This document shows positions 24,030 through 27,459 of a stretch of DNA of 36,756 bases, piece by piece. The DNA is from an uncultured bacterium. Lineage in GTDB: Bacteria; Bacillota; Clostridia; Lachnospirales; Lachnospiraceae. The notes beneath the pieces are model-generated. The model was not told the DNA's origin. It ran no database searches and worked only from the letters and a program-made list of their open reading frames with translations. Each line of letters opens with the position of its first letter. Position 1 is the first letter of the stretch. The position numbers and the translations under genes are program-made. Where the stretch lies: NCBI GenBank assembly GCA_947063875.1, contig CAMSTY010000037.1, positions 1-36,756 on the forward strand. Direction: 5' to 3'.

Positions 24030-24066
24030 AAAAGAAAATCAAAAAGAGAAGGGAGACAGCGCGGAT

Positions 24067-26031
24067 ATGAGAGAGTTAAGAGGACAGGTGACAATTTTTA
24101 TCAGTATGATTATGATGTGCGTATTCGCGCTGTTTTGCTGTTTGCTGGAATCTTCCAGAACTGCAGGAGCCAGGTGGTATTTGCAGACAGCAGTGGCTTC
24201 GGCAATGGATTCCGTGTTCAGCCAATATCACCGCCGGCTATGGGATTCCTACCGGCTATTGTTCGCGGAATATGAGCGGGAGGAAGAACTGGAGGCAGAT
24301 TTTTCACTTTTTCTGCAGTCCTATCTGGATACGGAGAATTGGTATCCGATGGAACTGCAGACAGTGAAGCTGGAGGAGTGGCAAAAGGCTGTTGACAATA
24401 CTGGTATATATCTGGAAGAGGAGATTCTGGATTATATGAGGTATGGAATATGGGATATGGATTTTAATGAGGATACCGTCAGCAGCCTGTGGGCGGATGG
24501 AGAACAGGCAGACGCGGTGAAAACCGTAGCTGAGACTTACCGGGGCCATGCGGATGATGCCTTAAAGCTGGAAAAATCTTTAGAGGCAATTAGTGAAAGC
24601 CAGGAAAAACAGCTGAATATGAAACAGGAAGGGAGCGCCAGGCTGCGTAGTTATAATGGCGCTGGTTTCCGCCAGATTGCAGCTTCCCTGATCCGGGAAC
24701 AAAAAAGGATGCCGGGACTGGTAAAAAATTACCGGCGTCAGGCAGACGCACTGGCGGCAAAGCTAAACGCAAGCCGGAAAATGTTTACGGAAGAGAGCGG
24801 GCGGTGCAGCAGCCAGGTAGAAGATCAGTTAGATGGGGAAATTCAGCAGTTTGAGGCTTATGTGGATCAGGATGGAGAACGCCGGAGGGAGGTGGAATCT
24901 CTGGAAGGGCAATCTTATGAGCAGGTCGCTTTGGTAGAAGCCGTGATTCGGGAATCAGAGGAGGTAGAACGAATTATTGATGAATGGGAAAGCGATGATG
25001 AAGATGACGAAGGACCGGATTTGGAGGCGCTGTGGTCGCCGGTCATTCGGCATTTTGAACAGTTGACGATTCATTCCTTGTCTTTTACTCATGGAGTGAA
25101 AGATAAGGAAAAAGAAGGATGGCTCAAGCAAGTAGAAAAATTGTATCGCAGCGGAATGCTGGAACTTGTTTTGCCGGAAGGGACTGAGGTCTCAAAGGGA
25201 GTATTGGAAACGCCGGAGCTGCCATCAGAAAACGGATTGTTATCAGAGGGGAAACGGGGGATACCGCTTCTGAACCATCTCTTGGTAAATGAATATTGCG
25301 GAAAATTTTTTCGCTATTTTCCGATTGCGGAAGAACGGCAGACAGGAGAAAAAAACGGCCGGGAGGTAGGGGTGGAGGGTTCGGGCGGTCTGACTTATGA
25401 GATAGAATATCTGATTGGCGGAAAAAAACTGGATGAAGAAAATCTTGTTTACGTGGTAAACCGACTTCTGGCAATTCGGGAAGGACTGAATCTGATACAT
25501 ATTTTATCGGATAGTCAGAAACGGCAGGAAGCCCAAAAGCTGGCTATGATGATTACCGGAGTGGCGGGACTTTCGCCTCTGGTATTGCTTACGACATTTT
25601 TTGTGATGTCAGTTTGGGCGCTGGGGGAATCCCTGATGGATATCCGCGGGTTGCTGGCAGGAAAAAAAGTCATGATTTTTAAGACATCTGCGGACTGGAC
25701 ACTGAATCTTGAAAACCTGCTTACTATGGGGCAGGAAGGAGAAATCGGCACAGGGGGCAATGAGAGGGGATTGGGATACCTTTCATGGCTGAAGATTTTA
25801 TTGTTTATGGATGAGATTGTGTGTCAGGAATATCGGATGATGGATATGATTCAGATGAATATTTGCAGGGAGCAAAGCAGCTTCCGCATCCGGCGTGGGA
25901 TATATCGGGCGAGGATAAAGGGGATGTTGACTGGAAAGCATGTATTTTTTTCGCTTGGGTTTATGGAACATGCAACGGGAGGCAGAGATCATACCTATCC
26001 TATGGAAGCGACTATAGAACGAAAATATTAA
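24067..26031 (+). CDS. DUF5702 domain protein, TadE/TadG-like pilus component
   Basis: 654 residues. The N-terminus (RGQVTIFISMIMMCVFALFC) is a single membrane helix in the position of a TadE/TadG pilin-like segment, followed by SSRTAGARWYLQTAVASAMD and YHRRLWDSYRLLF, which I associate with DUF5702. The centre (about 160-330) is charged, Gln/Glu-rich and probably coiled coil. A second hydrophobic segment lies near 505-530 (AGLSPLVLLTTFFVMSVWAL). The family occurs in Tad loci of Clostridia; the exact role, perhaps pilus base or envelope crossing, is unknown. RBS GAAGGGAGA lies upstream. A weak codon-level charge bias is the only other oddity. Confidence 0.75.
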   Translation: MRELRGQVTIFISMIMMCVFALFCCLLESSRTAGARWYLQTAVASAMDSVFSQYHRRLWDSYRLLFAEYEREEELEADFSLFLQSYLDTENWYPMELQTVKLEEWQKAVDNTGIYLEEEILDYMRYGIWDMDFNEDTVSSLWADGEQADAVKTVAETYRGHADDALKLEKSLEAISESQEKQLNMKQEGSARLRSYNGAGFRQIAASLIREQKRMPGLVKNYRRQADALAAKLNASRKMFTEESGRCSSQVEDQLDGEIQQFEAYVDQDGERRREVESLEGQSYEQVALVEAVIRESEEVERIIDEWESDDEDDEGPDLEALWSPVIRHFEQLTIHSLSFTHGVKDKEKEGWLKQVEKLYRSGMLELVLPEGTEVSKGVLETPELPSENGLLSEGKRGIPLLNHLLVNEYCGKFFRYFPIAEERQTGEKNGREVGVEGSGGLTYEIEYLIGGKKLDEENLVYVVNRLLAIREGLNLIHILSDSQKRQEAQKLAMMITGVAGLSPLVLLTTFFVMSVWALGESLMDIRGLLAGKKVMIFKTSADWTLNLENLLTMGQEGEIGTGGNERGLGYLSWLKILLFMDEIVCQEYRMMDMIQMNICREQSSFRIRRGIYRARIKGMLTGKHVFFSLGFMEHATGGRDHTYPMEATIERKY

Positions 26032-26035
26032 AGAG

Positions 26036-26175
26036 GGGGACAGACAGGAATGCCTTTTTCCATGGAAGAAAAGAAAATCAAAAAAATCGTGACTCTCCAA
26101 GTACGAATCCTGAAAAAACACAACATTAATATTGTTCAAAACTGCCATAGGAGAAAGGCATTCCTGTCTGTCCCC
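26036..26175. repeat. 140-bp element bounded by 22-bp perfect inverted repeats
   Basis: Arms 26036-26057 (begins GGGGACAGACAGGAATG) and 26154-26175 are exact reverse complements over 22 bases and enclose 96 bases. The left arm contains the ATG (26050) of the next gene and overlaps its ribosome-site region. The element encodes residues 1-42 of that protein, and the pilin-like segment starts right after the right arm. It starts 5 bases after the upstream stop codon. No clear target duplication is seen. From memory, GGGGACAGAC-type termini occur on small palindromic repeat elements of other bacteria; this cannot be verified here. Confidence 0.9.
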
Positions 26176-26976
26176 GCGGCGTTGACATTAGAAACAGCCA
26201 TGTGCATGACATTATTTATTTTTGCTTCGGTTTGTCTCATTCTGCCAATGAAGATCATGAATACAGAGAGGATTGTGCAGGCTTCTCTGGAAGAATCCGG
26301 CGAGGATTTCAGCCGTTATGCCTATGTTTCAAATGCTTTGGAGAATAATAAAGCATTTGCGATAGTCGGAGCCGAAGATTTTGCGAAAGAATTCTGCCGT
26401 CATCTGGTATCCGGCGCAGCCAAGGGATATGCACAAATGCAGGTGATGGATCGCGTGGATACCAATGCCATGAGAGGGGTTAATATGCTGCGAGCTCAGG
26501 TTTTAGAGGATGGGGAAACCATTGATTTGATATTGGATTATGAAATCCGTCTTCCTTTTCCGGTATTAGGGCTTCCGGCTTTACAAAGATCAGCAAGATG
26601 CTGCCGCCGGGCCTGGATTGGAAAGGAAGGAAAGGACTATGACAAAGAAGGAGGACAGTCAGGCGAGGGAGAAGATCCCGTGGTTTATGTAGGAAAGAAC
26701 AGCACTCGTTACCACAAAAACCGAAGCTGTCATTATCTGGCAAATAATCTGAAGGGAGTACCAAAGGAGCAGATAGCAGAGTTGCGCAATAACGGCGGAG
26801 GAAAATACCGTCCTTGTGCTATCTGCGGAAATAATGCAGGCAATATGGTATATATTATGCCAAACGGAAGCAGCTACCATACAGGAAAGTATTGCTCGGC
26901 AATCGTGGCATATGCGCGGGCGGTGCGATTGTCGGAGGTAAGACACCTGGGAGCGTGTTCTTACTGCGGAAAATAG
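26050..26976 (+). CDS. TadE-like pseudopilin with tandem Cys/His C-terminal motifs
   Basis: 308 residues. The first 42 come from the inverted-repeat element. Then follows a TadE-like segment (AALTLETAMCMTLFIFASV, Glu48 at +5 if cut after Ala43; helix about 51-69), an extracytoplasmic domain (70-185), and a C-terminal tail with two similar modules: His222-x4-Cys227 with Cys256-x2-Cys259, and His277-x4-Cys282 with Cys303-x2-Cys306. Each begins YVGKNSTRYH- or YIMPNGSSYH-like. Such modules resemble short zinc-binding (Ada-like) motifs seen at the ends of secreted Firmicutes nucleases. If native N-terminal coding was disrupted, the real start may be a TTG at 26182. The TadE class is inferred. Confidence 0.72.
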   Translation: MPFSMEEKKIKKIVTLQVRILKKHNINIVQNCHRRKAFLSVPAALTLETAMCMTLFIFASVCLILPMKIMNTERIVQASLEESGEDFSRYAYVSNALENNKAFAIVGAEDFAKEFCRHLVSGAAKGYAQMQVMDRVDTNAMRGVNMLRAQVLEDGETIDLILDYEIRLPFPVLGLPALQRSARCCRRAWIGKEGKDYDKEGGQSGEGEDPVVYVGKNSTRYHKNRSCHYLANNLKGVPKEQIAELRNNGGGKYRPCAICGNNAGNMVYIMPNGSSYHTGKYCSAIVAYARAVRLSEVRHLGACSYCGK

Positions 26977-26991: not shown

Positions 26992-27459
26992 ATGAGAATG
27001 GCGGTATTTATGGGATTTTTGCTGGTAGCGGCCGGTCAGGATCTGTATCGAAAAGGGATTAAGGTATGGGTATTTGCATTGTTTGGAATCATTGCACTGG
27101 CAGCAGACGGATATCTGTGGAGTCAGGCAGGCAGTGAGTTTTGCTGGCGGAGCCATTTGTGGAGTTGTGGTGTGGGGGCAGGATTGCTGCTGTTGGGGAA
27201 AATCTGTGGAGGAAGTATTGGAGCAGGGGACGGCTGTTTTTTTCTGATAAGCGGTCTGCTATTGGAATTCTGGGAGAACTTGATGGTACTTTGTATCGGG
27301 GTCATTTTGTGTGGCTCGTATGGATTGTGCCTATTTGTGTGGAAGAAGATTCGGACAGGGGAAAATATAGGCAAGCAAACTGTTCCGTTTCTCCCGTTTG
27401 CCGTGATCCCGGGAGTATGGATGGCAGTGGAAAACAATTTTTGGAGGTGGCAGAAATGA
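26992..27459 (+). CDS. Second A24-type prepilin peptidase
   Basis: 155 residues, about five hydrophobic helices. Both A24 Asp are in place: after the first helix (VAAGQDLYRKGIKVWV) and in GSIGAGDGCFF. It is shorter and only distantly like the peptidase at 19025. It sits between two TadE-like genes, so it could process those pseudopilins while the first one processes Flp. The start may be ATG 26992 or 26998; AAGGTGGGGAG at 26981-26991 fits 26998 slightly better. Its stop overlaps the next start (ATGA). Confidence 0.8.
   Translation: MRMAVFMGFLLVAAGQDLYRKGIKVWVFALFGIIALAADGYLWSQAGSEFCWRSHLWSCGVGAGLLLLGKICGGSIGAGDGCFFLISGLLLEFWENLMVLCIGVILCGSYGLCLFVWKKIRTGENIGKQTVPFLPFAVIPGVWMAVENNFWRWQK

What the first reader, a model, noticed from the sequence alone, without database searches (positions are those of the whole stretch)
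26036..26175. Inverted-repeat element supplies the start codon and N-terminus of a pilus gene
Two exact 22-bp inverted repeats enclose 96 bp at the start of the TadE-like gene. The ATG is in the left arm, and residues 1-42 are encoded by the element, with the conserved pilin-like helix beginning right after. The inner segment is 96 bp, a multiple of three. If it were inverted, the frame from the same ATG would read MPFSYGSFEQY and then stop, so inversion would switch the gene off. Alternatively it is a small palindromic insertion element captured as a new N-terminus. In mRNA the arms could pair and hide the ATG.
Basis: partly seen in the sequence, partly recalled or inferred. Interest (0 to 1): 0.75.

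Follow-up and report, generated by a model that had tools for sequence, protein, structure and literature searches.

The report
Long mRNA hairpin over pilus-gene start
The inverted repeat is not a flipping or inserted DNA element but one copy of a long, conserved RNA hairpin that gut bacteria of one large family carry at the start of a pilus gene, where in this genome it should bury the gene's start signal.

Summary
In detail: exact 22-bp inverted arms enclose 96 bp, and the left arm holds the ATG. The DNA-element readings are not supported. The arms belong to a 32-pair RNA helix. In 30 relatives it shows 84 double-sided compensatory cells against 24.6 in shuffles, mostly wobble among the non-Watson-Crick cells, and frozen codons under the element. 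A covariance model finds it in 147 of 397 genomes of the family (taken as Lachnospiraceae). Of 90 hit regions inspected, 89 are at this gene. Of 40 DUF5702 loci sampled from family genomes without that hit, 35 still have a helix of at least 18 bp there. None of 20 sampled outside the family does. No reversed loop core was seen.

Best reading: a structured mRNA element that occludes the Shine-Dalgarno and start codon of a TadE-like minor pilin gene and gates its translation. The structure is near certain; the mechanism is inferred. In 15 of those 35 loci the start sits in the loop, so hiding it may not be the whole function. The window matches no Rfam family at threshold. The apical CUCUCCA hairpin may bind a trans factor.

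The parts
26036..26068 (+). 5' arm of the basal helix: Shine-Dalgarno region, spacer, start codon and first codons
   Evidence: 26036-26057 is exact
26033..26039 (+). Shine-Dalgarno-like GAGGGGG, at the base of the helix
   Evidence: sequence; at least 4 of 6 SD-window bases paired in 117 of 118 elements
26050..26052 (+). start codon ATG inside the 5' arm
   Evidence: start and pilin motif in one open frame in the relatives
26087..26106 (+). apical core hairpin, loop CUCCA, one bulged purine (fold of the window bulges A26092; the consensus drawing bulges the G at 26091)
   Evidence: third codon positions frozen; not found by RNAalifold
26106..26110 (+). conserved AAUCC at the 3' side of the core hairpin
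26142..26175 (+). 3' arm of the basal helix, inside the coding sequence (KAFLSVP region)
   Evidence: 26154-26175 is exact
26050..26976 (+). TadE-like minor pilin / pseudopilin gene, 308 aa, leader followed by TLETAM... helix from codon 46
   Evidence: no Pfam hit and no NCBIfam hit near a cut-off, so the name rests on the pilin-like motif and the neighbours
24067..26031 (+). upstream gene of the operon, PF18960 (DUF5702); stop 18 nt before the TadE-like ATG
26992..27459 (+). neighbouring type IV leader peptidase-like gene (PF01478, E 1.1e-4, below its cut-off)

Best explanation
A conserved structured element of the tad-type pilus operon mRNA. Its 5' arm is the ribosome-binding site and first codons of the TadE-like gene. 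Its 3' arm lies roughly 100-200 nt downstream, inside the coding sequence for the leader. On a completed transcript the arms form a long helix that buries the Shine-Dalgarno and start codon, so free 30S subunits should not initiate. Translation would then be possible mainly in the short time before RNA polymerase has made the 3' arm, or when something else (a ribosome finishing the upstream DUF5702 gene, or a factor binding the apical CUCUCCA hairpin) keeps the arms apart. That would make the minor pilin a low, timed or conditional product of the operon. Shown: the helix is kept by compensatory and wobble changes, it covers SD and start in this class, the leader frame stays open, and it sits at one gene in one family within the samples. 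Inferred: that it represses translation, how it opens, and that anything binds the core.
For: Basal and core helices on 30 relatives (MAFFT alignment, not fitted): 91.4% of cells paired versus 83.9% shuffled and 45-48% slid; 24 of 40 pairs with double-sided change; 0 of 500 shuffles reach any of the five measures. The 13 pairs whose 5' side is untranslated: 94.9% paired versus 85.4%, 41 double-changed cells versus 11.5. A 39-row set fitted to the model: 301 double-changed cells versus 95.9. In 23 basal pairs of the 30 rows: 609 Watson-Crick, 59 wobble, 22 other cells. Commonest-codon fraction 0.91-0.93 under arms and core versus 0.58 in 132 later columns of 22 rows. Start codon fully paired in 109 of 118 and SD window in 117 of 118 predicted folds, the start being taken as the NTG nearest the model position. 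Start and pilin motif in frame in 19 of 19 loci where frame was not imposed (4 of 23 not located by that rule); an open frame joining start, core and motif in 29 of 30 by the rule, the thirtieth being the window. Upstream stop 6-92 nt before the start, median 28, in 55 of 57 loci. The helix base falls at the Shine-Dalgarno although arm sequences differ (37 distinct 13-mers of 39). A second start-covering helix at the DUF5702 gene in part of the genus points the same way.
Against: In 15 of the 35 helix-bearing loci the first usable start lies in the loop and in only 12 in the 5' arm; in L197 the arm AUG is lost while pairing is kept. So a helix is kept where it does not hide the start. The upstream stop lies 5' of the start in all 55 loci, so upstream ribosomes hardly enter the helix (in one search the 5' arm begins before the end of the stop in 6 of 35); the coupling review describes a case where a stop well upstream of a hairpin abolished coupling (PMC12548453, passages). 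In 60 further hit regions the stop distance is wider, 0-162 nt in 59. SD pairing with the core in the nascent RNA is predicted at P>0.5 in only 9 of 53. RNAalifold does not predict the core hairpin. In one search the count of pair types on the 30 rows (21) is equalled by the best of 500 shuffles. One of 30 folds has z only -0.75 (L089). 5 of 40 sampled family loci have no helix of 18 bp. No expression, probing or ribosome data.
Confidence: 0.55

Rival explanations
1. The helix is an RNase III (double-strand ribonuclease) site or stability barrier that splits or tunes the polycistronic mRNA between DUF5702 and the TadE-like gene; covering the start is secondary.
For: A long, nearly perfect duplex with varied arm sequences fits a structure-specific nuclease. 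It would explain both the start-in-arm and the start-in-loop forms.
Against: In the window's class the helix base falls at the SD, which cleavage alone would not need. Cutting would detach the ribosome-binding site from the gene in both classes. A stretch of the loop is frozen at nucleotide level, which a plain duplex would not require.
Confidence: 0.25
2. The apical core (CUCUCCARGUACGAAUCC) is a binding site for a protein or small RNA that opens or locks the gate, making the whole a regulated riboregulator.
For: Third codon positions ACT, CTC and CGA are invariant in 20 of 20, 22 of 22 and 20 of 20 rows. A core pair changes from A-U to C-G in 2 of 30 rows. CTCTCC is kept in 83 of 118 elements.
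Against: 35 of 118 elements lack CTCTCC in the loop. No partner found. Three of four other own-genome near-matches of the core have no inverted repeat around them, and the fourth only repeats away from the core.
Confidence: 0.3
3. Invertible DNA switch, as first proposed: recombination between the arms flips 96 bp and turns the gene off.
For: Exact arms; the flipped loop would stop after 11 codons.
Against: 0 of 118 elements show a reversed core. Non-Watson-Crick cells in the arms are mostly wobble. No recombinase search was made and no reads were available.
Confidence: 0.02
4. A small mobile palindromic element (REP, MITE or IS200-like) captured as a new N-terminus.
For: Family-specific leader extension: sampled loci outside the family mostly have short leaders and no helix of 18 bp. 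L163 is a second hairpin without the gene in one genome.
Against: No second copy in the genome, no Y1_Tnp, 89 of 90 inspected hits at this gene, arms differ between genera but co-vary.
Confidence: 0.04
5. Selection on the leader peptide alone (MPFS...VTLQVRI...KKAFLSV), the repeat being a by-product.
For: The leader frame is kept and residues are conserved.
Against: The untranslated half of the 5' arm co-varies with the coding 3' arm. Codon choice is frozen under the element and less so in later columns.
Confidence: 0.03

Closest known systems
Translation-initiation hairpins that sequester SD/AUG, including the RNA-unfolding model of translational coupling (review PMC12548453; passages seen)
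   Same: mRNA structure over the ribosome-binding site of a downstream operon gene, a few tens of nt after the upstream stop
   Different: The anti-SD arm is far inside the gene's own coding sequence, the upstream gene runs at most a few nt into the 5' arm, the helix is about 20-37 bp, and it recurs across a bacterial family
Type I toxin mRNAs with SD-sequestering structures formed during transcription, e.g. Helicobacter aapA3 (PMC6733600; abstract and outline seen)
   Same: SD-sequestering hairpins in the 5' UTR and inside the ORF; timing during transcription proposed to matter
   Different: No antitoxin RNA was sought or seen here, the target is a pilin gene inside an operon, and the lock is one long helix
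Structured RNA motifs with SD and AUG inside a stem, as in the 50-genome survey (PMC11109978; passages seen)
   Same: One motif there is described with SD and AUG at the bottom of a large imperfect stem, with covariation
   Different: Another gene; the terms pilus, Flp, tad and Lachnospir have no occurrence in that paper's main text
Rfam cis-regulatory RNA families
   Same: conserved structured element at a gene start
   Different: No match to any of 4227 Rfam 15 models at gathering threshold in the window (relatives not scanned); 6 sub-threshold matches look like chance hairpins
Invertible promoters and REP/IS200-type palindromes (recalled, no call)
   Same: inverted repeats of similar size
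   Different: no second copy in the genome, no reversed loop seen, RNA-type covariation

Membership tests
cis-acting SD/start-sequestering mRNA element | SD and start codon base-paired in the predicted mRNA fold | tested here: met
   117 of 118 and 109 of 118 elements; the arm start was used even where a loop start exists
cis-acting SD/start-sequestering mRNA element | pairing preserved by compensatory change | tested here: met
   (fitted alignment)
cis-acting SD/start-sequestering mRNA element | pairing lowers translation, disruption raises it | not testable with these tools
   needs reporters
cis-acting SD/start-sequestering mRNA element | start hidden in all relatives that keep a helix | tested here: not met
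   first usable start in the loop in 15 of 35 helix-bearing loci
Rfam family (any of 4227) | score above gathering cut-off | tested here: not met
   0 matches in the window
invertible DNA switch | both orientations occur | tested here: not met
   0 reversed cores in 118 elements; no reads available
invertible DNA switch | recombinase nearby | not tested
   no recombinase search was run
IS200/REP/RAYT palindromic element | Y1 transposase in the genome | tested here: not met
   PF01797 in 0 of 1 own genome (92% complete); controls ring in 5 of 14
IS200/REP/RAYT palindromic element | several dispersed copies | tested here: not met
   of the second matches that one search lists, all but one (G106) are the opposite strand of the same place; its list is cut
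TadE-like pseudopilin (host gene) | profile match to a TadE family model | tested here: not met
   no Pfam match, two sub-cut-off unrelated NCBIfam matches; the name rests on the S/A-x-T-L-E motif, the hydrophobic helix and the neighbours

The most novel reading that the evidence does not exclude
A new family-wide class of structured regulatory RNA that overlaps UTR and protein-coding leader. A duplex of about 30 bp locks a minor-pilin gene, and an ultraconserved apical CUCUCCA hairpin receives an unknown protein or small RNA that opens the lock, so that pilus assembly in gut Lachnospiraceae is set by an RNA switch inside the tad operon.
Probability: 0.3. Interest if true: 0.82.

Novelty: new variant of a known kind. 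Interest (0 to 1): 0.65.

Why it matters
Lachnospiraceae are a major family of gut bacteria (recalled). Here is a strongly covarying RNA element at one pilus gene across much of that family, with no Rfam match in the window at threshold, overlapping a coding leader that is presumably cleaved off the protein (inference from the pilin type). It shows how an RNA control element can evolve inside a dispensable leader peptide. It also gives a concrete, easily tested lock on pilus expression.

Tried and rejected
IS200/REP origin: own-genome searches for the element and for PF01797 gave nothing further. Own-genome near-matches of the core: no inverted repeat around L032-L034; L035 has repeats elsewhere that do not involve the core. 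Rfam at relaxed threshold: 6 hairpin-like matches, judged chance. Viral scan for the core: 4 hits, judged chance; the 4 frames printed show no pilin. The Comamonadaceae hit L054 is not at a pilin gene. Twelve weak model hits outside the family: none at a TadE-like gene by my motif rule. By the same rule 2 of 5 new family loci (L098, L099) also fail, though they lie directly after a DUF5702 match (places). SD-to-core pairing in the nascent RNA as a general step: only 9 of 53. Literature searches: (PMC open-licence library only). DUF5702 occurs in 0 papers there; 'candidate structured RNAs' with Lachnospiraceae in 0. PMC11109978 and PMC8632094 were searched for pilus and tad terms with no occurrence (passages only). 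So 'not in print' is claimed only for those searches.

Rows dropped before counts, and limits: one search misaligned the minus-strand loci and was not used for counts; the script stopped with an error after part of its rows. A6 left out L004, L021 and L048 because their antisense strands also passed the threshold (versus 46); of 58 loci, L079 had no start by my rule and L008 and L076 no long upstream ORF in the stretch held; my regex found the pilin ORF in 53 of 60; by eye six of the other seven show the pilin motif in some frame and L163 does not. Six of the 147 R2 genomes have only weak matches (E 0.002-0.006) and were not inspected. One search prints '39 with TM' because a helix of 0 (L211) was dropped by the count; 40 were scored. 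The 40 family loci and the 20 loci outside it were picked from the top of the PF18960 score lists, not at random; one of the 40 (G071) lacks an R2 hit but had an R1 hit.

Full report
The observation. The two 22-bp arms are exact, 96 bp apart, and the ATG at 26050 lies in the left one. No other exact inverted repeat of 14 bp or more with seeds up to 300 apart exists in the window, and 1 of 20 shuffles reached 14. The RNA fold has z -8.17; 32 pairs join 26036-26068 with 26142-26175.

The gene and its place. The 308-aa protein has no Pfam family at E 0.001 and only two unrelated NCBIfam matches far below cut-off. It carries a pilin-like A-L-T-L-E-T motif and hydrophobic helix, and it stands among a secretion ATPase (PF00437), an F-type protein (PF00482), DUF5702 (PF18960) and a weak leader-peptidase match. 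I call it TadE-like on that basis. Orthologues were found in 22 of 23 other genomes of the genus.

Arms and core are conserved together. In the relatives the 5' arm (SD, spacer, ATG), a core GTGACTCTCCAAGTACGAATCC and the 3' arm recur in order, with variable spacers. Where frame was not imposed, start codon and pilin motif are in frame in 19 of 19 located loci (4 of 23 not located). One search finds an open frame joining start, core and motif in 29 of 30, and the thirtieth is the window, seen; distances are 120-234 nt. So the leader is very probably translated. A scan of 84,980 genomes for the core found 25 records; 24 sit at this gene and one, a Comamonadaceae MAG, does not. Seven of them form a second group (5 of 7 labelled Hungatella sp.) with different arm sequences that still pair. 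Named records include Brotaphodocola and Ventrimonas, both Lachnospiraceae; I therefore take the tool's unnamed family f1 to be Lachnospiraceae.

It is an RNA helix. On a MAFFT alignment of 30 sequences not fitted to any structure, 91.4% of cells pair (shuffled 83.9%, slid 45-48%), 24 of 40 pairs show double-sided changes, and 0 of 500 shuffles match any measure. RNAalifold on its own finds the basal helix with 27 pairs, 18 of them compensatory, but not the core hairpin. Restricting to the 13 pairs whose 5' side is upstream of the start codon keeps the signal in paired cells and double changes, while the number of pair types is equalled by the best shuffle. Non-Watson-Crick cells are mostly G·U (59 of 81 in 690). 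Codon choice is frozen under arms and core (0.91-0.93) and less so later in the gene (0.58). DNA recombination sites or peptide selection alone would not be expected to give this pattern.

Extent. Model R1 finds it in 59 of 397 genomes of the family; R2, built from 29 members, in 147 of 397 genomes and 128 of 334 genera, six of them weakly. The two hit lists are not nested. Of 90 hit regions inspected (30), 89 are at a gene with the pilin motif: 30, then 53 by regex and six more by eye; L163 is not. Folding z averages -6.1 over 30 elements, with 29 of 30 below -4. DUF5702 is present in 380 of the same 397 genomes. Of 40 DUF5702 loci from genomes without an R2 hit, 35 have a helix of at least 18 bp (33 of at least 22), against 3 of 400 shuffles; one search had scored the first 20 with an earlier rule, 19 of 20. 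Of 20 DUF5702 loci of other Clostridia families none reaches 18 (maximum 16). A pilin helix was called in 16 of these, one of them (L226) doubtful, and most have short leaders such as GSI-TVEA that leave no room for a helix. So, within the samples, the leader extension and the hairpin belong together and to this family.

Two architectures. In the window's class the start is in the 5' arm, and the helix base falls at the SD although the arms differ (37 distinct 13-mers of 39). In the other class a second SD and start stand in the loop (15 of the 35 helix-bearing loci, with 12 in the arm; also L137, L145 and L149). There the arm AUG can even be lost (L197). This is the strongest evidence that hiding the start is not the whole story, and it keeps the RNase III rival alive.

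Not a switch, not a transposon. The core is forward in 83 of 118 elements and reversed in none: three GGAGAG 6-mers, none extended, and 32 with neither. There is no second copy in the genome and no Y1 transposase hit. No recombinase search was made.

Mechanism. The upstream stop is 6-92 nt (median 28) before the start in 55 of 57 loci, and 0-162 nt in 59 of 60 further ones. A terminating ribosome could at best touch the helix base, so coupling by unfolding is weak here; the review PMC12548453 (passages) describes loss of coupling when the stop lies well upstream of a hairpin. A helix of this predicted stability should shut initiation on finished mRNA, which leaves the time before the 3' arm is made, or a trans factor. 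SD-sequestering structures formed during transcription are proposed for type I toxin mRNAs (PMC6733600, abstract). The core's CUCUCC resembles an anti-SD, but nascent folds pair it with the SD in only 9 of 53, so that step is not supported in general. All of this is inference; no expression data were available.

Novelty. No Rfam family matches the window at threshold, and the searches list no paper on it within an open-licence library. As a kind it is a start-occluding mRNA element; as a variant it is unusual in length, in having one arm inside the gene's own leader, and in its family-wide covariation.

Noticed in passing
window 24050-24069 with 24120-24139: A second start-covering helix (19 pairs) at the DUF5702 gene: SD and ATG pair with the coding stretch for CVFALF. 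At least 14 pairs near the start in 7 of 16 genus sequences in which a start was found (21 examined). By eye six pair locally (window, L243, L244, L245, L247, L249); L255 has a more distant partner. z in a wide window is only -1.87.
   Followed up: partly
L185-L187, L190, L194; L137, L145, L149: Start-in-loop members that share an RBS of the type GGAGAAGGATTCGTAC (with variants) before the ATG, most with CTCCCCTCA or CTCCTCAC after it; GGATTCGTAC is the reverse complement of GTACGAATCC of the class-1 core, which may be chance.
   Followed up: partly
L163 (second place in genome G106): A 16-bp SD/ATG hairpin of the same look without a TadE-like gene behind it; possibly a decayed copy.
   Followed up: no
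L035:819-1071 (own genome, another contig): Exact 50-bp inverted repeat with further arms inside (GGCAAAAAGACGGCAGT); looks like a separate repeat element, unrelated to the core.
   Followed up: no
window 26052-26059 (U-run after the start codon): GCCUUUUU directly after the ATG recurs in many relatives and could be a polymerase pause; untested.
   Followed up: no
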